Part shown: positions 45,287 through 55,431 of the stretch, in pieces | Numbering within the stretch: the stretch's first letter is position 1 | Layout: each line of letters starts with the position of its first letter | Assembly: GCF_000515255.1 (NCBI RefSeq) | Contig: NZ_KI911559.1 | Span: 4,033,347 to 4,097,346, forward strand | Direction of reading: 5' to 3' | Length of the DNA: 64,000 nucleotides | Source of the DNA: Rhodovibrio salinarum DSM 9154 | GTDB taxonomy: Bacteria > Pseudomonadota > Alphaproteobacteria > Kiloniellales > Rhodovibrionaceae | Notes under the pieces: model-generated | What the model was told of the DNA's origin: nothing | Seen by the model: the letters and a program-made list of their open reading frames with translations, nothing else | The model's database searches: none | Made by a program: the position numbers and the translations under genes

Positions 45287-46054
45287 ATGGATGCGATGGA
45301 CTGGAAATCTCTGCTTCTGCCGCCCGGCGGCCTGTTCCTGTTCGCCGGCGCACTGTTTCTGGGCGCCCGGGTGCTCGGCGTGGGTGCCCGCTGGCCTGCA
45401 GCGATCAGCATCGCAATCGCCTACCTGACCTGCACGCCGATCGTGGGCGACACGGCCCTGTCCTGGCACCAGACCGCCCCACCCCTTTCGGCGGACTCGC
45501 TGCGCCCCGATCCAAACGGCCCCGGGGCCGTGGTCATCCTGAGCGCGGGCCTGCGCAGCTGGACCGACGGGCCGGCGCAACCACGCCTGGACAGCCTGTC
45601 GACCACCCGCCTGCTGTACGGCGCCGAGCTCGCCGAGCGCACCGGCTTGCCCGTGCTGGTCACCGGCGGCCCATGGGGGGACGACAATCGCCCGATCGCC
45701 CGGGAGATGGCGGCTTTCCTGCGCCACTGGTCCAACGCGGAGGTGCGCTGGGTCGAAGCGCAAGCCCGCAACACCTGGGAGAACGGACGCTACAGCGCCC
45801 GCCTGCTGGAACAGGCCGGAATCGAGCGGGTCTTCCTGGTCACCCACGCCTGGCACATGCCGCGTGCCGCCCACGCCTTCCGGGCACATGGGCTCGACAT
45901 CGTGCCCGCACCGACCGGCTTCATCGCCCCGCCCGGACCCAGCTTCCACAGCCTGCTGCCCCAGCCCAGCGGCCTGCAAACCAGCTACTGGGCCCTGCAT
46001 GAACTGCTCGGACGGATCTACTACCGCTGGGCGCGCGACGCGGACGGCGGCTAG
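45287..46054 (+). CDS. YdcF/DUF218-family protein
   Basis: The 255-residue protein has two N-terminal membrane helices followed by a DUF218 domain. AVVILSAGLRSW, LPVLVTGGPWGDD, VEAQARNTWENGRYSARLL and VFLVTHAWHMPRAAHAF are the family's conserved pieces. Members (SanA/YdcF/ElyC) act at the envelope and affect glycan or antigen synthesis, but their reaction is not settled. It is common near exosortase-associated genes, as here. Confidence 0.88.
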   Translation: MDAMDWKSLLLPPGGLFLFAGALFLGARVLGVGARWPAAISIAIAYLTCTPIVGDTALSWHQTAPPLSADSLRPDPNGPGAVVILSAGLRSWTDGPAQPRLDSLSTTRLLYGAELAERTGLPVLVTGGPWGDDNRPIAREMAAFLRHWSNAEVRWVEAQARNTWENGRYSARLLEQAGIERVFLVTHAWHMPRAAHAFRAHGLDIVPAPTGFIAPPGPSFHSLLPQPSGLQTSYWALHELLGRIYYRWARDADGG

Positions 46055-46173: not shown

Positions 46174-47439
46174 CTACACCAGCAACTGCGCTGGCTGCGG
46201 GTGACTCAGGAAATCGCGGGGGCTGGCAGAGAAGCCGTAGGCGCCGGACTGGAAGATCGCGATCAGGTCGCCCGGTTCGGCATACGGCAGGGTCACCTTG
46301 TCGGCCAACAGGTCGATCGGCGTGCACAGGCAGCCGACCACGCTCACCGTTTCCGTCGCCGGCGCGTCGAACCGGGTGGCCACCGCCACCGGAAAGTTCC
46401 GCCGGATGCCCTGCCCGAAGTTGCCGGTCGCGGCCAAATGGTGGTGCAAGCCGCCGTCGGTGACGAGGTAGGTCTGCCCGCGGCTGACCTTCCGGTCGAT
46501 CACGCGCGTCAGGTACACGCCCGCCTCCGCGACCAGGTAACGGCCCAGTTCGATCACCAGGCGCGCCTCGGGCAACGCGTGGGCCACCCGCTCGGCCAGC
46601 GGGTGCAGCGCCTGGCCGACGGCCGCGAGGTCGAGCGACACATCCTTGGGGAAGTAGGGCACGCCGAAGCCGCCGCCGATGTTCAGATGGCGCACCGGGG
46701 CCGGTGCATGTTCGGCCAACCGGATCGCCAGATCGACGATCGCCGCTTCGGCCTGAACCAAACTTTCGGCGTTCAGGTTCTGCGAGCCGGCAAAGATGTG
46801 GAAGCCAACGAACGTGAGCGACAACCCCGCGAGTTCGGCCAGCAGGTCGGGCACCGCTTCCGCGTCGACGCCGAACGCGCTCGGTCCGCCCGCCATGTGC
46901 ATACCCGCGCCCTTGAGGCGAAAGTCGGGATTCACCCGCACTGCCACGCTGGGCCGCACGCCCTGGGCGCGCGCGATCGCAGCGGCACGGCGCATCTCGC
47001 CCACGGATTCCAGCTCGATCACGATCCCGGCAGCGATCGCCTGCGTCAGTTCCGCGTCCGTCTTGCCGGGCCCGGCGAAACCGACGTGCGCCGGGTTCAC
47101 ACCGGCGTCGAGTGCGGCCTGCAACTCCAGGCCGGAGGCGACGTCGACCCCATCGACCAGCCGGGCAAGCTCGGCGATCACCGCCGGCATCGGATTGGCC
47201 TTGATCGCGTAGTGCAGATGGACCGACGGCGGCAGCGCGTTGCGCAGGTGCGCGACCCGCTGGGCGATCTTGGCCCGGTCGTAGGCGTAGAACGGCGTCC
47301 GCCCCGCCCGACGTGCCAGCGCGCTCACCGGCTGGCCGCCGATCCGCAGCTCACCCCCAGCAGCCTCCCAGGGCTGCAGAGCAGGGTGCACCGCCGCCGA
47401 AGCCGTCAGCGGACCCCGACGCGCCTCGAGTTCGCTCAT
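46174..47439 (-). CDS. PLP-dependent decarboxylase, exosortase-A-associated type
   Basis: The 421-residue fold-type III enzyme resembles diaminopimelate and ornithine decarboxylases. The PLP lysine lies in HLHYAIKANPMPAV, the glycine-rich phosphate loop in HLNIGGGFGVPYF. The Cys-x-x-x-Asp of the neighbouring subunit is in VGCLCTPIDLLADKV. It matches the group annotated as 'pyridoxal-dependent decarboxylase, exosortase A system-associated' (TIGR03099). Its ATG overlaps the ligase stop codon, so it is coupled to the ligase and the asparagine-synthase-like gene. The amino-acid substrate is unknown. Confidence 0.88.
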   Translation of the reverse strand: MSELEARRGPLTASAAVHPALQPWEAAGGELRIGGQPVSALARRAGRTPFYAYDRAKIAQRVAHLRNALPPSVHLHYAIKANPMPAVIAELARLVDGVDVASGLELQAALDAGVNPAHVGFAGPGKTDAELTQAIAAGIVIELESVGEMRRAAAIARAQGVRPSVAVRVNPDFRLKGAGMHMAGGPSAFGVDAEAVPDLLAELAGLSLTFVGFHIFAGSQNLNAESLVQAEAAIVDLAIRLAEHAPAPVRHLNIGGGFGVPYFPKDVSLDLAAVGQALHPLAERVAHALPEARLVIELGRYLVAEAGVYLTRVIDRKVSRGQTYLVTDGGLHHHLAATGNFGQGIRRNFPVAVATRFDAPATETVSVVGCLCTPIDLLADKVTLPYAEPGDLIAIFQSGAYGFSASPRDFLSHPQPAQLLV

Positions 47440-49019
47440 GCCTCGATCTCCTGGGCGGGTTCGGTCATCTGCTGGGCCAGGCGCTTGCGATCGATCTTGC
47501 CGTTTGGAGAGCGCGGCAGTCCGGCGCGCAACGCGATCTGCTGCGGTACCATGAAGCGCGGCAGCGCCGCCCGGCAGTGCGCCAACACCCGATCCGGGGC
47601 GTCCGTCACATCCGGCTTGGCGACAACGGCGGCGACGATCGCCTGACCCAGCGCCCGGTCCGGCACGCCGAAGGCCGCCGCTTCCGCAACCACGCCACTG
47701 GCGAAGATCGCCTCCTCCACCTCCGTCGGGCTGACGCGGTAGCCGGAGGTCTTGATCATCTCGTCGCCGCGGCCGACGAAGTAGAGGAAGCCGTCAGCGT
47801 CCAGACGCACCAAATCGCCGGACCAGACCGCTGGTTCCGCCATCGGCAGTTCCGCCGGCTGGCCGGGCGCGGGCTTGAAACGCTCGGCGGTACGTTCGGG
47901 GTCGTTCCAGTAACCGAGCGCGACCAGCGGGCCCCGGTGCACCAGCTCGCCCTGTTCACCCGGCCCGGCCAAGCTCCCGTCGGGCCGGGCCACCAGGATC
48001 TCGGCGTTCGGGATCGCCTTGCCGATCGAGTCCGGACGACAATCGACCTCCTCCGGATCGAGGTAGGTCGACCGGAAGGCCTCCGTCAGGCCGTACATCA
48101 AATAGGGGGCGGCGTTCGGGAACAGCGCCCGCAAGGCGGCCAACACATCGCGCGGCATGTGCCCGCCGGTGTTGGCGAAATAGCGCAGCTGCTCGCGCGC
48201 GGCCTCCGACCAGGCGACCTGGGTTAGCTGGATCCACAGCGGCGGCACGCAGGTCAGGCCGGTGATCCCCTCGCGCGCACACACCTTGGGCACATCCGCC
48301 GGCAGCAGGAAGTTATGCAGCACCAGACAGGCGCCCGCCGTGAACCCGGTGGTCAGCTGGCTGAACCCGGCGTCGAAGCTGAGCGGCAGCAGCGCCAGAA
48401 TACGGTCCTGCGCGTTGTTCTTCAGGTAACCTGCTACGCTCGCCCCGCCGACCGCCAGATTGCGATGGGAGACCACCACGCCCTTCGGTTTGCCCGTGCT
48501 GCCGGAGGTGTAGAAGATCGCCGCCGGATCGCTGTCGACCGGTGGACCGGCCGGCGCCGGGCCCCCACCCGCTGCATCGAGGAAGTCCGCCCAGGTCAGG
48601 ACGGCGATGCCGGCTGGACCGTCCGGCGCCGCCGCATCCACGACCACCACGTGGGTGACCGCGCTGTCCGCGACGTCGGCCGAGAGAGTGGCCAGCCGGC
48701 TGGCGCTCGTGACCATTACGCGCGCGCCGCTGTCGCGCAGGATGTGACCGATCTGCGGGGCCTTCAGAACCGGGTTGCAGGGCACCGCGATCATGTTTGC
48801 GGCGAAGGCGCCGAAGACCGCCGCCACCGTCTCGATCCGCTTGTCCAGATAGACCGCGACCCGGTCCAAACGCGCCAGACCTAGCTGCGCGAAGGCGCGC
48901 GCGACCCCGTCCTGCAGGGCCGCGACCTCGCCATAGCTCAGCGCGCGCGCGCCGGCCTTGAGCGCCGGTGCGTCGGGCCGACAGGCGGCCTGCGCCCGCA
49001 GAGTCTGAAACAGCATCAT
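47436..49019 (-). CDS. AMP-forming acyl-CoA ligase, exosortase-A-associated type
   Basis: The 527-residue adenylating enzyme activates a carboxylic acid with ATP. Core motifs are IFYTSGSTGKPKGVVVSHRN (P-loop), YLMYGLTEAFRSTYL and, in the C-terminal swivel domain, FVGRGDEMIKTSGYRVSPTEVE, with the catalytic lysine in RSPNGKIDRKRL. It corresponds to TIGR03098. It may load its acyl group on the ACP encoded by the divergent arm at 52077-52337. It is linked by four-base overlaps to genes on both sides. Confidence 0.9.
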   Translation of the reverse strand: MMLFQTLRAQAACRPDAPALKAGARALSYGEVAALQDGVARAFAQLGLARLDRVAVYLDKRIETVAAVFGAFAANMIAVPCNPVLKAPQIGHILRDSGARVMVTSASRLATLSADVADSAVTHVVVVDAAAPDGPAGIAVLTWADFLDAAGGGPAPAGPPVDSDPAAIFYTSGSTGKPKGVVVSHRNLAVGGASVAGYLKNNAQDRILALLPLSFDAGFSQLTTGFTAGACLVLHNFLLPADVPKVCAREGITGLTCVPPLWIQLTQVAWSEAAREQLRYFANTGGHMPRDVLAALRALFPNAAPYLMYGLTEAFRSTYLDPEEVDCRPDSIGKAIPNAEILVARPDGSLAGPGEQGELVHRGPLVALGYWNDPERTAERFKPAPGQPAELPMAEPAVWSGDLVRLDADGFLYFVGRGDEMIKTSGYRVSPTEVEEAIFASGVVAEAAAFGVPDRALGQAIVAAVVAKPDVTDAPDRVLAHCRAALPRFMVPQQIALRAGLPRSPNGKIDRKRLAQQMTEPAQEIEA

Positions 49020-50974
49020 AGGGAGGCCTCCGGCAAGGCGTCCACGGCGGACGCGGGATCGGACCGATGGTCAGGATGGCCGGGCGCTTGCGCGACACGG
49101 CGGTCGACCGGCGCTTCGCGCGCCTGCCACCAGATCTCCAGCATCAACAGGTCCCAGACGATCGCGGACAGCTCGGGATCACTGTCGTCTGCGTGGGCGC
49201 GCAGCACCTGGTCCAGGAAATCGGCGCGGAAGATCTTCCGGGTCTTGAGCGCGGCAAACGCGTCGACCACCAGGGCCCAAAGACCGGCGTCGCTGCGCGT
49301 CCACTCGCTGAACGGCATGCCGAAGCCATGCTTGGGCTTGGTCAGGATCGACTGCGGCAGGAAGCCAACCATCGCGTCCTTGAAGAAGGCCCGCAGGCGG
49401 AAGCGCTGGATCAGCAGGTTCGACGGCAGCCCGGCGGCGAACTCGACCAGCCCCGGATCGAGCATCGGGTAGGCGATCTCCACGCCCGCCAGCGCGCCCG
49501 CGCGCTGCACCTTGCGCAGATCGTTGTCCGAGAGCGTCACCCGCCAGTCGAGGCGCTGCATGGCATGCACCAGATCATCGGTCCCCGCCTCCGCATAGTG
49601 CCGGCGCCAGGTCGCCGCGGGTGCATCCACTTCGATCTCCGCCAGGGCATCGGCGGTGAAGATGTGATCCAGCACGTCGCGCCGGTAGATCCCGCTCTCA
49701 ATCATGCGTTCCGGCATCGGCTGGGCGGCACGCGCGACGTAGCGCTGCGCCTTGCCCAGCCAGGAAACCGCCAGGCGCGACGGCAGCGCCGACAGCGTTG
49801 TGCTCAGTCCGGCGCGGACCGCTCCGGGCAGATGGCCGTACAGGCCCAGGATCTTCTGCTCGACATAACGCTTGTTGCCGGCGAACAGCTCGTCTCCGCC
49901 ATCGCCGGCCAGCAACAGATCGACGCCCGCCTCCCGGGCCATCCGCGCGCAAACGTAGGCCGGCAGGAGTGAGGAGTTGCCGAACGGCTCGTCGCACGCC
50001 GCCGCCAGCGTCGGCACCAGGTCGGCGGCGTCCGACGGGCTCAGATGACGGGTGTTGTGCGCGAGGCCGAAGTGTGCCGCCGCGCAGGCCGCGTAGCTGC
50101 TTTCGTCGTAGCGCGGATCCTCGAACGCGATCGTGAACGCGGGCGTGCCCGCCCCGGCCGCCTGGCCGAGCAAGCCCGCGACCACCGAGCTGTCCAGCCC
50201 GCCGCTCAGAAAGGCGCCCGGATGCTGCGCGGGGTGCGTCGCCAGCGTGCCCCGCACCGCCCCGTCCAGCCGATCATGCAACTCCTCGGCAAGCGCGTCC
50301 CGGCGACCGGAAACGCTGCCCGGGGCCGGCGGATGCCAATAGGGCACCTGCTGAACTTGGCGCCCGGCACACCACTCAAGCGCATGGGCCGGCAGCAGCT
50401 TGGCCGCGCCGGCGTAGATCGTCTCCGGCGCCGGGGAGACGTAGTTCAACGCGTAGCGGTAAACCGCCTGCGGCGTGATCTCGGTATCGACGCGCGGATG
50501 GGCCGCCAAGATGTCGAGGTCGGTGGCGAAGACGAGCCCGCCGTCCGCCTCGGCGTAGAACAGCTGCTCCACGCCCATCCGGTCGATCGCCAGCACGGCG
50601 CGTCCCGCTACCGGGTCGAGCACGACAAGCGCAAAGGCACCGACCAACTGCGCCGCCAGCCCATCGCCACGGGCCAAGTAGGCCTGCAGCAGCGCCGCCG
50701 GCAGCCCGATCTCGCCTACACGGGCCTGCCAGGCTTGCGCGCGAAAGCGCGGCCGGCCAATGAAAGCGACCTGCCGGCCCGCTTCATCGCGACCATAGCC
50801 GACGGGCGCCCGATCGGCGGTGTCCGGAACGCCGCAAATGCCCAGTGCACACGCGCCGTTCGCCGCCGTATCGCCCGCGTTCCAGGACTCGCCCGGCCGC
50901 GTTGCCGCAAGGCGTAGTAACTGGTTAGAGCCGCCCAGCCGGACGGACCCAATCCAACCGAACAACGCCGGCAT
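49016..50974 (-). CDS. Asparagine-synthase-like amidotransferase/ligase lacking Cys2
   Basis: The 652-residue protein has a class II glutaminase-like N-terminal domain and an ATP-pyrophosphatase C-terminal domain with the loops AFLSGGLDSSVVAGLLG and LLLAGDGGDELFAGNKRY. Asparagine synthetases need Cys as residue 2 for glutamine hydrolysis, but this protein starts Met-Pro-Ala-Leu-Phe-Gly-Trp. An in-frame stop lies two codons upstream, so the start is secure. It may use free ammonia or, like beta-lactam synthetase, form an amide from another amine. It replaces the usual XrtA-associated amidotransferase in this gene neighbourhood. Confidence 0.88.
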   Translation of the reverse strand: MPALFGWIGSVRLGGSNQLLRLAATRPGESWNAGDTAANGACALGICGVPDTADRAPVGYGRDEAGRQVAFIGRPRFRAQAWQARVGEIGLPAALLQAYLARGDGLAAQLVGAFALVVLDPVAGRAVLAIDRMGVEQLFYAEADGGLVFATDLDILAAHPRVDTEITPQAVYRYALNYVSPAPETIYAGAAKLLPAHALEWCAGRQVQQVPYWHPPAPGSVSGRRDALAEELHDRLDGAVRGTLATHPAQHPGAFLSGGLDSSVVAGLLGQAAGAGTPAFTIAFEDPRYDESSYAACAAAHFGLAHNTRHLSPSDAADLVPTLAAACDEPFGNSSLLPAYVCARMAREAGVDLLLAGDGGDELFAGNKRYVEQKILGLYGHLPGAVRAGLSTTLSALPSRLAVSWLGKAQRYVARAAQPMPERMIESGIYRRDVLDHIFTADALAEIEVDAPAATWRRHYAEAGTDDLVHAMQRLDWRVTLSDNDLRKVQRAGALAGVEIAYPMLDPGLVEFAAGLPSNLLIQRFRLRAFFKDAMVGFLPQSILTKPKHGFGMPFSEWTRSDAGLWALVVDAFAALKTRKIFRADFLDQVLRAHADDSDPELSAIVWDLLMLEIWWQAREAPVDRRVAQAPGHPDHRSDPASAVDALPEASL

Positions 50975-51138
50975 GACTTAGGCGCCGTGCGCATGCCGGC
51001 CCGGACGGCGGAGCCGACGGCCGACAAGAGCGGAATAATCGAGCATGCAGGACCGCACTCAAACTTGGCAGGGACGAAGGAAGCGCCGTGGGTCTCCCAA
51101 GGCTCCAGCAGCCTAGCAGCCGGGCGTGTGGGGCGAAT

Positions 51139-51939
51139 TCACCCTTCCGGATGACCCCCGACTGGGTGCCGGGCCGACACCGCGGGCGACGGCGCAGGCA
51201 CCTCCCGCGCGCCCACCGAAATCGGCCCCGCATCGACCCGCAGCGTCGGGACAGCCTGCGGTCCCCATCCGACCGACAGCCCCGGCGCACACGACGCGCG
51301 CATCACCTGCAGCGGCCCGAGGCATAGGAAGTCAGCCCGGCCCACGGGCACGGCCCCCAAGCTGGCGTGACCGCGCAGCGAAGCCGGATTGAACGCGGAA
51401 ATCCGACTCAGACTCGCAACCACGCCGCGCCGGGCGAGCTCCGCGTCAGCGGCGTCCCAGAGCGCGGCGAACGCGCCGGTCATGCGGAAGGCCGGGTCGA
51501 CATAAACGTCAAAGTCCCAGCTGCAACGCCCGCTTGGCAGCGGCACGAAGCGGCAACGCACCTCGTCTTCCAGATAGGCGCCGACGACGAACCATAGGGT
51601 GCCCACGAGCGTGTCGTCACGATAGAGCGCGAGGCACTCCGCCCCCTGCGCGAAGCGGCGCTTCACCACCGCCCGGTCGGACGGGAGCGCCTTCAGCGCG
51701 GGATCACCCGGCTGGAGCAACCGGCTGGTGAAACGCGCTGCCCGGCGGGCGGGCAGGCGCGGCGTCGCCGCCACCGGCTGCGCCACCAAACGATAGCTGT
51801 AGACGGAGATCGCCACCGGAAGGCGCGCGCAGACCCGGTGCAGAACGTAAAGCAGCGTACTCCAGGCGCCGAGCGCGCATACGGTTGCCACGACCCGACC
51901 AAGCCACGGCCAGCGGAAACGACGGAAGACGGTGGTCAT
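51139..51939 (-). CDS. GNAT-like acyltransferase
   Basis: From the ATG at 51939 the protein has 266 residues. An N-terminal hydrophobic segment (VVATVCALGAWSTLLYVLH) is followed by a GNAT-like core. ECLALYRDDTLVGTLWFVVG leads to CSWDFDVYVDPAFRMTGAFAALWDAA, where acetyl-CoA should bind, and then SRISAFNPASLRGHASLGAVP. The Gln/Arg-x-x-Gly-x-Gly/Ala loop is degenerate. It opens the minus-strand arm of the divergent locus. It could acylate the module's product; the acyl donor may be CoA or the neighbouring ACP. Confidence 0.62.
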   Translation of the reverse strand: MTTVFRRFRWPWLGRVVATVCALGAWSTLLYVLHRVCARLPVAISVYSYRLVAQPVAATPRLPARRAARFTSRLLQPGDPALKALPSDRAVVKRRFAQGAECLALYRDDTLVGTLWFVVGAYLEDEVRCRFVPLPSGRCSWDFDVYVDPAFRMTGAFAALWDAADAELARRGVVASLSRISAFNPASLRGHASLGAVPVGRADFLCLGPLQVMRASCAPGLSVGWGPQAVPTLRVDAGPISVGAREVPAPSPAVSARHPVGGHPEG

Positions 51940-52076
51940 CACGCAAGCCCCTGAAACCGGCTCTCTTTCGGGGGTGCCCGTTTGCCCCGCCGGGGTTGGC
52001 TGGACACCCATCGGTGCCTTGGATAGGTCAAACGGACCGGCATCCACCGTCTCCGTTACAAGTTGGGATGACAAGT
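51940..52076. promoter_or_regulatory. Divergent promoter region of the exosortase-type locus
   Basis: This 137-bp region separates the two arms (GNAT gene on minus, ACP gene on plus) and must carry both promoters. A GGGA ribosome site ahead of the ACP ATG is visible. No operator repeat was picked out by eye. Confidence 0.5.
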
Positions 52077-52337
52077 ATGACGACATTCGAGCAGGTGCGC
52101 GAGGTTCTGGCATCAACCCTTCAACTGGGCGATTCCGTCAAGACCTTCACGCCGGAAACCGGATTACTGGACGAGATTCCTGAATTCGATTCGATGGCCG
52201 TGGTCAACGTGGTCGCCGGTTTGGAAGAGCACTTCGACATCGTGATCGATGACGAGGAACTAACCGCAGAACACTTCGCCACCCTGGGCAGCCTGACCGT
52301 CTTCGTCGACGACAAGCTGACCGCCAACGCGGCCTGA
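52077..52337 (+). CDS. Acyl carrier protein
   Basis: The 86-residue acidic protein has the four-helix carrier fold. The 4'-phosphopantetheine attachment serine lies in IPEFDSMAVVNVVAGLEEHF. It is a stand-alone carrier, not linked to fatty-acid synthase genes. Its place at the head of the plus-strand arm, opposite an AMP-forming ligase, suggests the two work together in loading an acyl group, as in exosortase-A-associated loci. The ATG at 52077 has a GGGA ribosome site with eight-base spacing. Confidence 0.92.
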   Translation: MTTFEQVREVLASTLQLGDSVKTFTPETGLLDEIPEFDSMAVVNVVAGLEEHFDIVIDDEELTAEHFATLGSLTVFVDDKLTANAA

Positions 52338-52358
52338 CGAACGCGACCCGTTCCGACC

Positions 52359-53189
52359 ATGCCCCCGCCCCCCGGACTACAGCCCGCGTTCGTCGATGGC
52401 CCCGCCGGGGCGATCTTCACACTCCGCTTCCCGGCGGCCGGCGGCAGCCTGGGCACAGCAGCCCTGCTGGTGCCGCCGTTCGCGGAGGAGATGAACCGCG
52501 CCCGGCGTTTCCTGGCGGCAACCGGCCGTGGCCTCGCCGCACAGGGGCACACGGCCCTGCTGCCCGACCTGCACGGCACCGGCGACAGTGCCGGCGCCTT
52601 CGCAGCAGCGACCTGGGAAATCTGGCAGGCGGAACTCGACACCCTGACCGAACGCCTGGCGGCAGAGACCGGACATCCCGTGCACCTGATCGCGGTACGC
52701 ACCGGCGCGCTGCTCGCCGCTGCGACCGCCCGCCAGCATCCGGGCGCCGTGGCCGGTCTGACGCTGGTGCAGCCGGTGACCGACGGCGGCCGTTTCCTGG
52801 ACCAGCTGCTGCGCGTGCGCATTGCCGCGGCGATGGCGCAAGGCCAGCGGGAGAGCCGCGCGGACCTGCGCGCGGCCTGGCAGACGGGCGAGGCCGTGGA
52901 GGTCGGCGGTTACGCGATCGCACCGGCCCTGGCCGAGGGGCTGAGCGCATGCCGGCTGGGCGACCTGCCGCCGCCGGCCGGCCTGCCCATCGCCTGGCTG
53001 GATATCCGCGCACCCGGCAGCGACGCCCCGACCCAGTCCCCTGCCCTGCCGGCCGGTTGGCATTCGGCCGCAGACACGCGGCGTAGCATCGCCGCACCGG
53101 CCGTCTGGCAGCTTGCCGAACCGGAAACCGCCGACCCGTTGGTGGCGGAGCTGTGCAACACCCTGTCCCCGCAGCAGGTCGCGGCGTGA
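52359..53189 (+). CDS. Alpha/beta hydrolase, exosortase-A-associated hydrolase 2 type
   Basis: The 276-residue protein has alpha/beta-hydrolase features: LLVPPFAEEMNRARRFL, ALLPDLHGTGDSAG and the elbow VHLIAVRTGALLAAATA. At the nucleophile position the elbow shows Arg instead of Ser, as I recall for TIGR03101 proteins, so ordinary serine-hydrolase chemistry is doubtful. It follows the ACP gene by 21 bp and overlaps the next hydrolase by four bases. It could bind or release an ACP-linked acyl group. Confidence 0.82.
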   Translation: MPPPPGLQPAFVDGPAGAIFTLRFPAAGGSLGTAALLVPPFAEEMNRARRFLAATGRGLAAQGHTALLPDLHGTGDSAGAFAAATWEIWQAELDTLTERLAAETGHPVHLIAVRTGALLAAATARQHPGAVAGLTLVQPVTDGGRFLDQLLRVRIAAAMAQGQRESRADLRAAWQTGEAVEVGGYAIAPALAEGLSACRLGDLPPPAGLPIAWLDIRAPGSDAPTQSPALPAGWHSAADTRRSIAAPAVWQLAEPETADPLVAELCNTLSPQQVAA

Positions 53190-54157
53190 GCGCGCGGCAC
53201 CAGAGCGCGACGACGACGGCGCGGGAAGTCGCGCTTACCTTCGACTGCGTCGGGAGCGAGGCCGTGGCGATCCTGCACAGGCCGGCCGTGCCCGCGCCCG
53301 TGGGGGTCGCGATCGTGGTGGGCGGGCCACAGTACCGGGTGGGCGGGCATCGGCAGTTCGTGGATCTGGCCCGCGACCTCGCCGCCGCCGGGATCGCCGT
53401 GTTCCGCTTCGATTATCGCGGGATCGGCGACAACGCGGCGAACCATCCCGGCTTCCCGAACATCGCCCCGGATATCGAGGCTGGGCTCGCCGCCTTCCGC
53501 GCGGCCATGCCGGAGGTCACGTGCATCGCGCTGTGGGCGCTGTGCGACGCGGTGCCCGCCGCCGCCGGGATCGCCGCCCGGACGCCGGACGTCGTGGGGA
53601 TCGCCGCCGTGAACCCGTGGATCCGCGAGCCGGAGACGCACGACCGCGCGCTGCTGCGGCACTACTATCTGAAGCGCCCGCTGCAGCGGGATTTCTGGAC
53701 CAACCTGCTACGCGGCCGGACGCACACCCGCGATTTTTCCCGGCTCGCCCAGCGGGCGCTGGCGCGCGCGGCAAGCCGGGTGACCCGGCGGAACCGGAGC
53801 GACGAGACATCGACCCCCACGGACGAAAGCCTGGCCGCACGCGTGGTCACCGACCTCGCCCGGGTTCGCGGGAACGTGCTCGTGCTGTTGAGCGAACAAG
53901 ACCTGACCGCGCGCGAGTTCGATGACGCGGTGCAGCCGATGCCGGGCTGGCAGCGGCTCATGGAAACCTCCCGATTGCAACGCGTCCATTTGGCGGACGC
54001 GGACCACACCTGCGCGGGCTGGCGCGCGCACCGCGCCTCGGCGGACGCGACGGTGGCGTGGCTGCACGGCTTGCCGGAGATGGCATCGGCCCAGTCGGCG
54101 AGCCCAACGCATGCGCGCCCCACAAACACCCCCCACGCCAAGGTTCTGGGCCGATGA
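53186..54157 (+). CDS. Alpha/beta hydrolase, exosortase-A-associated hydrolase 1 type
   Basis: The 323-residue protein starts at a GTG that overlaps the previous stop (GTGA). Early motifs are VAIVVGGPQYRVGGHRQFVDL and VFRFDYRGIGDNAAN. The elbow IALWALCDAVPAAAG has Cys-Asp where Ser would stand, as in TIGR03100 proteins. A C-terminal acid and His (HLADADHTCAGW) fit the triad. It could act as a thioesterase or acyltransferase on the ACP-bound intermediate. It overlaps the downstream glycosyltransferase in ATGA. Confidence 0.85.
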   Translation: MSARHQSATTTAREVALTFDCVGSEAVAILHRPAVPAPVGVAIVVGGPQYRVGGHRQFVDLARDLAAAGIAVFRFDYRGIGDNAANHPGFPNIAPDIEAGLAAFRAAMPEVTCIALWALCDAVPAAAGIAARTPDVVGIAAVNPWIREPETHDRALLRHYYLKRPLQRDFWTNLLRGRTHTRDFSRLAQRALARAASRVTRRNRSDETSTPTDESLAARVVTDLARVRGNVLVLLSEQDLTAREFDDAVQPMPGWQRLMETSRLQRVHLADADHTCAGWRAHRASADATVAWLHGLPEMASAQSASPTHARPTNTPHAKVLGR

Positions 54158-55431
54158 CCGAAACGCTGCTGCCGCCCGTCGACGCCCGTCCGGGACCATG
54201 CACGGACACGCCGCCCACGCCCAGGCTCCAAGGCCAGCGCATCCTCTACGTCACCCACCGCTTTCCCTATCCCCCGAACGACGGGGCGCGGGTGCGGGCG
54301 TTTCACGCGATCCGCCATCTTGCCCGGGCGAACGCGGTTACGGTTGCAGCGCCGCTCCGCGGCGATGAGGCTGACCAGATTGCGGCACTGGAGGCGCTTG
54401 GCGTGCGCGTGATCGCCGCCCCGATCCCCCGCGCCGCCGGGCTGATGCGCACCTGCCTGAGTGCCGGCCTGGGCCGCTCCGCCTCGCGCGGGTACTTCGA
54501 CCAGCCGAGCCTGCGCCGCCAGCTCCGAACGCTTGCGGAGAACGGAAACTTCGACCTCGCGGTCGTGCACTGCTCGGCCGTGGCGCCGTATGTCTGCGAG
54601 TTGCCGATTCCGTTCAAAGTTCTCGACTACGTCGACGTGGATTCGGCGAAGTGGCTGGACTATCGACCGTTCGCCACCCCAGCAAAGCGGCTATTGTACA
54701 CACTGGAAGGCCGGTCGCTCGGCCGGCTGGAACGGGCGATGGCGCGGCGCTTCGACCTGTGCCTGTCCACCACCGCGTTCGAGGACGCCACGCTGCAGGC
54801 CCTTGCCGCGACCACGCGGGGCCGGCCGATCGCAAGCGCGGTGGTGCGCAACGGTGTCGACTTGGAGTTCTTCCACCCCTCCCCCGCGCCGTACGATCCC
54901 GACCGGATCTGCTTCCTGGGCCGGATGGACTATTTCCCGAACGAGCAGGCAATGGTGCGTTTCTGCGCCGACGTGCTGCCGCGCCTGCGCGCCGAGCGGC
55001 CGAACCTGCAGCTCACCATCGTCGGCGCCGATCCGGGGCCGGGCGTGCGGGCACTGGCGCAGCTTCCGGGCGTTGAGGTCACGGGGCGCGTACAGGACGT
55101 ACGGCCGTACGTCTGGCGGTCGGCGGCGACCGTGGCGCCGTTGCTGATCGCCCGGGGCACGCAGAACAAGATCCTGGAATCGATGGCGATGGGCGTGCCG
55201 GTGGTGGCGAGCGAGCTGGCCGGCCGTGGTGTTCAGGCGGTGCCGGGCGAACATCTGCTGACCGCCGCCACCCCGGCGGATACCGCCGAGGCCGTGCTAT
55301 CGCTGCTGCGCACACCGGGCGAACGCGCCCGCCTGGCCACCTCGGCGCGGGCGCTCGTCGAACGCGACTACAGCTGGACGACCACGCTGGCGGAGTTCGA
55401 CGCTCGCCTGGCAACCCTCGTCAGCCGCTAG
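54154..55431 (+). CDS. Glycosyltransferase family 4-like, TIGR03087 type
   Basis: The 425-residue protein is a GT-B glycosyltransferase of the exosortase/EpsH1-associated TIGR03087 group. It begins RILYVTHRFPYPPNDGARVRA, contains DYVDVDSAKWLDY, VVRNGVDLEFFHPSPAPY and ICFLGRMDYFPNEQAM, and ends with the donor-binding segment NKILESMAMGVPVVASELAG. Start ATG overlaps the hydrolase 1 stop. It is the last gene of the plus-strand arm. Its stop overlaps that of the convergent epimerase gene. Confidence 0.92.
   Translation: MTETLLPPVDARPGPCTDTPPTPRLQGQRILYVTHRFPYPPNDGARVRAFHAIRHLARANAVTVAAPLRGDEADQIAALEALGVRVIAAPIPRAAGLMRTCLSAGLGRSASRGYFDQPSLRRQLRTLAENGNFDLAVVHCSAVAPYVCELPIPFKVLDYVDVDSAKWLDYRPFATPAKRLLYTLEGRSLGRLERAMARRFDLCLSTTAFEDATLQALAATTRGRPIASAVVRNGVDLEFFHPSPAPYDPDRICFLGRMDYFPNEQAMVRFCADVLPRLRAERPNLQLTIVGADPGPGVRALAQLPGVEVTGRVQDVRPYVWRSAATVAPLLIARGTQNKILESMAMGVPVVASELAGRGVQAVPGEHLLTAATPADTAEAVLSLLRTPGERARLATSARALVERDYSWTTTLAEFDARLATLVSR

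What the first reader, a model, noticed from the sequence alone, without database searches (positions are those of the whole stretch)
46174..55431. Exosortase-A-type accessory locus with no exosortase in sight
Nine genes in two divergent arms match families known from exosortase A/PEP-CTERM loci: PLP decarboxylase (TIGR03099), acyl-CoA ligase (TIGR03098), an asparagine-synthase-like enzyme, ACP, hydrolases 2 and 1, a TIGR03087 glycosyltransferase, plus a nearby YdcF-like gene. Yet I find no exosortase, PEP-CTERM protein, FemAB-like protein or PrsK/PrsR pair within the window. The tight ATGA/GTGA coupling says the set works as one pathway. A plausible hypothesis: the ligase loads an acid on the ACP, the decarboxylase makes an amine, and the asparagine-synthase-like enzyme joins them in an amide. 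The GNAT and hydrolases would then modify or release it for attachment to a glycan or lipid.
Basis: partly seen in the sequence, partly recalled or inferred. Interest (0 to 1): 0.75.

Follow-up and report, generated by a model that had tools for sequence, protein, structure and literature searches.

The report
Exosortase-A locus cut by window edge
The genes belong to an ordinary bacterial surface-polysaccharide and protein-sorting locus whose sorting enzyme lies just outside the window, but their sequences suggest that the unexplained accessory enzymes build an amine-bearing amino-acid unit on a carrier protein, which can be tested directly.

Summary
A full exosortase A (XrtA, fused to EpsI) lies 23.5 kb beyond the window end, in one polysaccharide locus with FemAB, the deacetylase, PrsT, PrsK and PrsR; three proteins over the PEP-CTERM cut-off lie elsewhere in the genome.

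Two things go beyond the current annotation.

(1) Ligase and decarboxylase look like an omega-aminoacyl-carrier pathway. The ligase's pocket region matches only VinN among solved structures, with D230/R331 kept. The decarboxylase matches BtrK far better than DAP decarboxylases. 'Hydrolase 1' keeps a Cys-Asp-His triad; 'hydrolase 2' has Arg in place of the nucleophile.

(2) The asparagine-synthase-like protein is not the known XrtA amidotransferase, which is separate and next to XrtA. It belongs to a clade (9 members found, support 100/100) that lost the glutaminase Cys. All 9 genomes carry an exosortase, the ligase and the decarboxylase.

Likely mechanism: amino diacid loaded on the ACP, decarboxylated there, transferred by hydrolase 1; the Cys-less synthetase forms a further amide. 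Substrate and acceptor are unknown. The ligase-decarboxylase-ACP trio also occurs without exosortase (G333, G610).

The parts
45287..46054 (+). YdcF/ElyC-like DUF218 protein next to the module
   Evidence: PF02698, 92 bits
46174..47439 (-). PLP decarboxylase TIGR03099, BtrK-like
   Evidence: 595 bits to TIGR03099; best solved relative BtrK, 258 bits; next 6knh 171, other DAP decarboxylases 145 or less
47436..49019 (-). AMP-forming ligase TIGR03098, VinN-like pocket (D216, R316)
   Evidence: 707 bits; pocket region matches only VinN; D in 17/18 and R in 18/18 family members, 2/21 and 0/21 in other ligases
49016..50974 (-). Cys-less asparagine-synthetase-like amide synthetase ('asnB2')
   Evidence: 271 bits to TIGR03108, cut-off 817; Cys2, RLxI and NGE lost in 9/9, SGGxDSS and GDGGDE kept; clade support 100/100
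51139..51942 (-). GNAT-like protein, no relative found in the other loci read
   Evidence: PF00583, 23 bits; no hit in the relatives' loci
52077..52337 (+). acyl carrier protein, DSM phosphopantetheine site
   Evidence: PF00550; Ser kept in 15/15
52359..53189 (+). 'hydrolase 2' TIGR03101, nucleophile replaced by Arg
   Evidence: 192 bits; Arg in 12/12
53186..54157 (+). 'hydrolase 1' TIGR03100, Cys-Asp-His triad (C120, D239, H274)
   Evidence: 268 bits; triad invariant; alpha/beta-hydrolase model
54154..55431 (+). glycosyltransferase TIGR03087
   Evidence: 387 bits
55428..56552 (-). UDP-GlcNAc 2-epimerase (WecB) starting the next part of the polysaccharide locus
   Evidence: TIGR00236, 277 bits

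Best explanation
This is the accessory half of an ordinary exosortase-A / polysaccharide locus, split by other glycan genes so that XrtA falls outside the window. Its enzymes most likely make an omega-aminoacyl thioester. The ligase adenylates a small amino dicarboxylic acid (Asp, 3-methyl-Asp or Glu) through its side-chain carboxyl and loads it on the ACP. The decarboxylase removes the alpha-carboxyl while the unit is on the ACP. The Cys-dependent hydrolase 1, with the nucleophile-less hydrolase 2, moves the aminoacyl group to an acceptor of the polysaccharide pathway. In the subset of genomes with asnB2, that Cys-less synthetase adenylates another carboxylate and condenses it with an amine. 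Shown here: membership of the locus, conservation of the active-site residues, co-occurrence. Inferred: substrates, order of steps, transfer by hydrolase 1, acceptor.
For: XrtA 292 bits (cut-off 208) at C1:4120864-4121637 and the rest of the XrtA set nearby. In five other genomes the same ACP-hydrolases / ligase-decarboxylase block lies 10-16 kb from XrtA. In a phylum sample 27 of 29 ligase-positive genomes have an exosortase, against 67 of 398 overall. Ligase pocket: only VinN matches, D and R conserved, control ligases mostly negative. Decarboxylase: BtrK 258 bits against 171 (6knh) and 145 or less for other DAP decarboxylases; the genome's own LysA shows the reverse, 412 for DAP decarboxylase and 154 for BtrK. 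BtrK decarboxylates glutamyl-S-ACP (PMC7857480). The VinN-type ligase, ACP and decarboxylase trio works the same way in macrolactam pathways (PMC10662134). Hydrolase 1 triad and hydrolase 2 Arg. asnB2 clade.
Against: No product or acceptor is known. VinN's F231 is Tyr or Ala here, so the exact substrate cannot be read off. Decarboxylation on the ACP is inferred from BtrK and VinO; the enzyme could act on a free or differently conjugated amino acid. Hydrolase 1 matches only generic esterases by fold, so transfer is not distinguished from hydrolysis. The trio also occurs without exosortase or hydrolases in G333 and G610, so its product is not made only for exosortase.
Confidence: 0.6

Rival explanations
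1. The ligase is a true acyl-CoA/ACP ligase for a fatty or hydroxy acid, and the decarboxylase separately makes a free polyamine-like amine; the asparagine-synthase-like enzyme joins them.
For: The family is named acyl-CoA ligase and scores well against fatty-acyl ligases; asnB2 can be an amide synthetase.
Against: The Asp/Arg pocket pair of VinN is conserved, and ordinary acyl-CoA ligases lack it; the decarboxylase is BtrK-like, and that clade has no polyamine role (PMC7857480); asnB2 is absent from most ligase-positive genomes.
Confidence: 0.15
2. The module is an exosortase-independent pathway that merely sits beside the XrtA locus.
For: G333 and G610 carry ligase-decarboxylase-ACP and no exosortase; G140, G232, G095 and G028 have ligases without exosortase.
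Against: 27 of 29 ligase-positive genomes have an exosortase, and in five other genomes read the block is 10-16 kb from XrtA; in the loci read, hydrolases 1 and 2 were found only in genomes with an exosortase.
Confidence: 0.18
3. The asnB2 gene is a decayed amidotransferase with no function.
For: Its glutaminase half is degenerate.
Against: The synthetase motifs are invariant across 9 divergent members of one clade (31-37% identity to the window protein), and it is adjacent to ligase/decarboxylase or hydrolase genes in several genomes.
Confidence: 0.05

Closest known systems
Exosortase A / PEP-CTERM exopolysaccharide locus (Haft et al. 2006, PMC1569441; Zoogloea and Aquincola clusters)
   Same: XrtA-EpsI, FemAB, deacetylase, ATPase, kinase, export, PrsT/PrsK/PrsR, TIGR03108 amidotransferase, TIGR03087 GT, ligase, decarboxylase, hydrolases
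   Different: Accessory block and XrtA are about 40 kb apart (ligase to XrtA), with glycan genes and a transposase between; a second, Cys-less asparagine-synthetase-like gene. A Zoogloea/Aquincola cluster with two asparagine synthetase genes is already reported (PMC9012009).
BtrI/BtrJ/BtrK of butirosin
   Same: ACP plus a BtrK-like decarboxylase and a separate ligase
   Different: Ligase of another family (from memory); the enzymes that add and remove the butirosin protecting group were not looked for
VinN/VinL/VinO (vicenistatin) and related macrolactam starter modules
   Same: Stand-alone adenylating ligase with D/R pocket pair, stand-alone ACP, PLP decarboxylase
   Different: No polyketide synthase gene among the annotated neighbours; Cys hydrolase and Arg pseudo-hydrolase instead of VinK/VinM; F231 replaced by Tyr or Ala
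Beta-lactam synthetase and TsnB9 hydroxyamidotransferase
   Same: Asparagine-synthetase fold; beta-lactam synthetase also works without a glutaminase Cys (from memory)
   Different: Only 14-20% identity in structural alignments; substrate unknown

Membership tests
Exosortase A (XrtA) locus | XrtA exosortase over the curated cut-off in the same locus | tested here: met
   TIGR03109, 292 bits against 208
Exosortase A (XrtA) locus | FemAB, deacetylase, export protein, PrsT, PrsK, PrsR | tested here: met
   TIGR03019, 03006, 03027, 02917, 02916, 02915 over cut-off; ATPase TIGR03015 and kinase TIGR03018 just under
Exosortase A (XrtA) locus | PEP-CTERM substrates in the genome | tested here: met
   Three proteins over the TIGR02595 cut-off, with hydrophobic stretch and basic tail; the motif reads VPVP, not the usual VPEP
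TIGR03108 XrtA amidotransferase (for the 49016-50974 protein) | Score over the curated cut-off | tested here: not met
   271 bits against 817
TIGR03108 XrtA amidotransferase (for the 49016-50974 protein) | N-terminal Cys2 and NGE glutaminase motifs | tested here: not met
   MPALFGWIG start; motifs lost in 9/9 of the clade
BtrK-type aminoacyl-ACP decarboxylase | Closest to BtrK among solved structures, CTP motif instead of CES | tested here: met
   258 bits against 171 or less; CTP in 14/14; LysA control reversed
BtrK-type aminoacyl-ACP decarboxylase | Acts on aminoacyl-S-ACP | not testable with these tools
   needs an enzyme assay
VinN-type amino-acid ligase | Asp230 and Arg331 equivalents, short beta13-beta14 loop | tested here: met
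   D 17/18, R 18/18; ungapped alignment to VinN over the loop
VinN-type amino-acid ligase | Phe231 equivalent | tested here: not met
   Ala here; Ala or Tyr in 16 of 17 relatives, Phe in G140
VinN-type amino-acid ligase | Activates an amino diacid | not testable with these tools
   needs an ATP-PPi exchange assay

The most novel reading that the evidence does not exclude
The omega-aminoacyl unit made by this block is placed on the polysaccharide or a lipid, and its free amine is the nucleophile to which exosortase A joins PEP-CTERM proteins, so the block makes the long-sought exosortase acceptor.
Probability: 0.1. Interest if true: 0.88.

Novelty: new member of a known kind. Interest (0 to 1): 0.48.

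Why it matters
The locus itself is known. But the accessory enzymes carry generic names (acyl-CoA ligase, hydrolase 1 and 2), and I found no paper in the held library that assigns them a chemistry. The active-site evidence turns them into a concrete assay: load an amino diacid on the ACP and look for decarboxylation. Knowing the product would bear on the open question of what exosortases attach proteins to.

Tried and rejected
Exosortase-free system: rejected for this genome. The 1132-aa plus-strand ORF opposite TIGR03108 (C1:4116710-4120108) was a gene-finder artefact: no family match, while the canonical amidotransferase lies on the other strand. The genome-contig scan with asnB2 returned only ordinary asparagine synthetases (MCG start wherever the N-terminus was present). 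Hydrolase 2 has no solved relative by sequence; hydrolase 1 matches generic esterases only, so the fold does not tell transfer from hydrolysis. The ACP's best solved match (2lki) carries no functional name. Literature: 'TIGR03098' and 'exosortase A system-associated' occur in no held paper, though most subscription papers are missing.

Full report
Setting. The window is G000:C1:4033347-4097346 of a one-contig genome of 4,176,524 bases. The genome's name was not given. Genes were called with a codon-usage script and checked against NCBIfam and Pfam.

Observation. Decarboxylase, ligase, hydrolase 1 and TIGR03087 pass their curated cut-offs; hydrolase 2 falls just short. The asparagine-synthase-like gene does not belong to TIGR03108.

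The exosortase is there. A genome search finds XrtA at C1:4120864-4121637 (292 bits, cut-off 208) in a 533-aa protein fused to EpsI. That is 23.5 kb right of the window end and about 32 kb from the finding. In the same stretch are FemAB, deacetylase, ATPase, tyrosine kinase, export protein, PrsT, PrsK, PrsR, TIGR03016, PEP_O_lig and the canonical TIGR03108 amidotransferase. Three proteins elsewhere pass the PEP-CTERM cut-off and show a hydrophobic stretch and basic tail; their motif reads VPVP rather than the usual VPEP.

Is the block normally with XrtA? Among 240 genomes of the class, 8 have the ligase over cut-off and 6 of these have XrtA over cut-off. In the five besides this one, the ligase is 10-16 kb from XrtA, with ACP and both hydrolases divergent from ligase-decarboxylase. 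Among 398 genomes of the phylum, 27 of 29 ligase-positive genomes have an exosortase, against 67 overall (hypergeometric 2e-21; related genomes are not independent, so this is only indicative). The two exceptions, G333 and G610, have ligase, decarboxylase and ACP but no hydrolases in the stretches read. So the trio can stand alone.

Ligase. A 160-residue stretch over the substrate pocket matches only VinN (3wv4, 3wvn) at E 1e-6 among all solved sequences. VinN activates 3-methylaspartate as a beta-amino acid; D230 holds the amino group and K330/R331 lie in a shortened loop (PMC11253843). The equivalent Asp is kept in 17 of 18 family members and the Arg in 18 of 18; among 21 other ligases they appear in 2 and 0. 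One of those 2 is a truncated, XrtA-like sequence.

Decarboxylase. Its best solved relative is BtrK (258 bits), then 6knh/6knk (171), then other DAP decarboxylases (145 or less). The genome's own LysA gives the opposite order. BtrK decarboxylates glutamyl-S-BtrI to a GABA thioester (PMC7857480). The BtrK-like CTP motif is in all 14 family members aligned, where LysA has CES.

Hydrolases. Hydrolase 1 keeps Cys120, Asp239 and His274 in all relatives aligned; Cys120 sits at the strand-helix turn of the model (pLDDT 83). Hydrolase 2 has Arg where the nucleophile should be in 12 of 12. A Cys-dependent acyl transferase with a non-catalytic partner is a reasonable inference; it is not shown.

Asparagine-synthetase-like protein. 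Nine proteins form one clade (100/100 support), separated by score from all other homologues (above 300 bits against 217 and below). All nine lack Cys2, the RLxI Arg and NGE, and keep SGGxDSS and GDGGDE; the other homologues keep the glutaminase motifs where that part is present. For four of the nine the exact start codon is uncertain, but no MCG-type start was found. All nine genomes have an exosortase, the ligase and the decarboxylase over cut-off. The model (mean pLDDT 78.8) aligns with TsnB9, AsnB, beta-lactam synthetase and carbapenam synthetase. Two asparagine synthetase genes in the floc-former cluster were already reported (PMC9012009); I found no report of the lost Cys in the papers read.

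Mechanism and limits. Best model: amino diacid loaded on ACP, decarboxylated there, transferred by hydrolase 1, with an optional extra amide by asnB2. No substrate, product or acceptor has been shown. The idea that the amine is the exosortase acceptor is a guess. It must contend with G333 and G610, where the trio exists without exosortase.

Verdict. The finding as stated is ordinary. The functional reading of the accessory block, and the Cys-less synthetase clade, are the parts worth following.

Noticed in passing
G000:C1:1067399-1068166 (L134), outside the window: A second exosortase-EpsI fusion (158 bits to XrtA, under cut-off; 104 bits to 8TM_EpsH, just under); its Cys, Arg and His motifs look intact by eye.
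   Followed up: partly
L130 and L086 (G140:C4:123551-147311): An XrtA-like polysaccharide locus (export, FemAB, deacetylase, amidotransferase, TIGR03087 GT, ligase) in a 100% complete genome with no exosortase hit; its ligase lacks the pocket Asp and no decarboxylase of the family is near.
   Followed up: partly
L126-L129 (G333, G610): Ligase-decarboxylase-ACP trio without exosortase and without hydrolases 1 and 2 in the stretches read.
   Followed up: partly
L013:13277-15307 (C1:4100622-4102652): One 676-aa ORF joins a polysaccharide export domain (TIGR03027) to the TIGR03016 outer-membrane protein.
   Followed up: no
L014:1294-2358 (C1:4108639-4109703): IS5/IS1182-type transposase inside the locus, between the accessory block and XrtA.
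   Followed up: no
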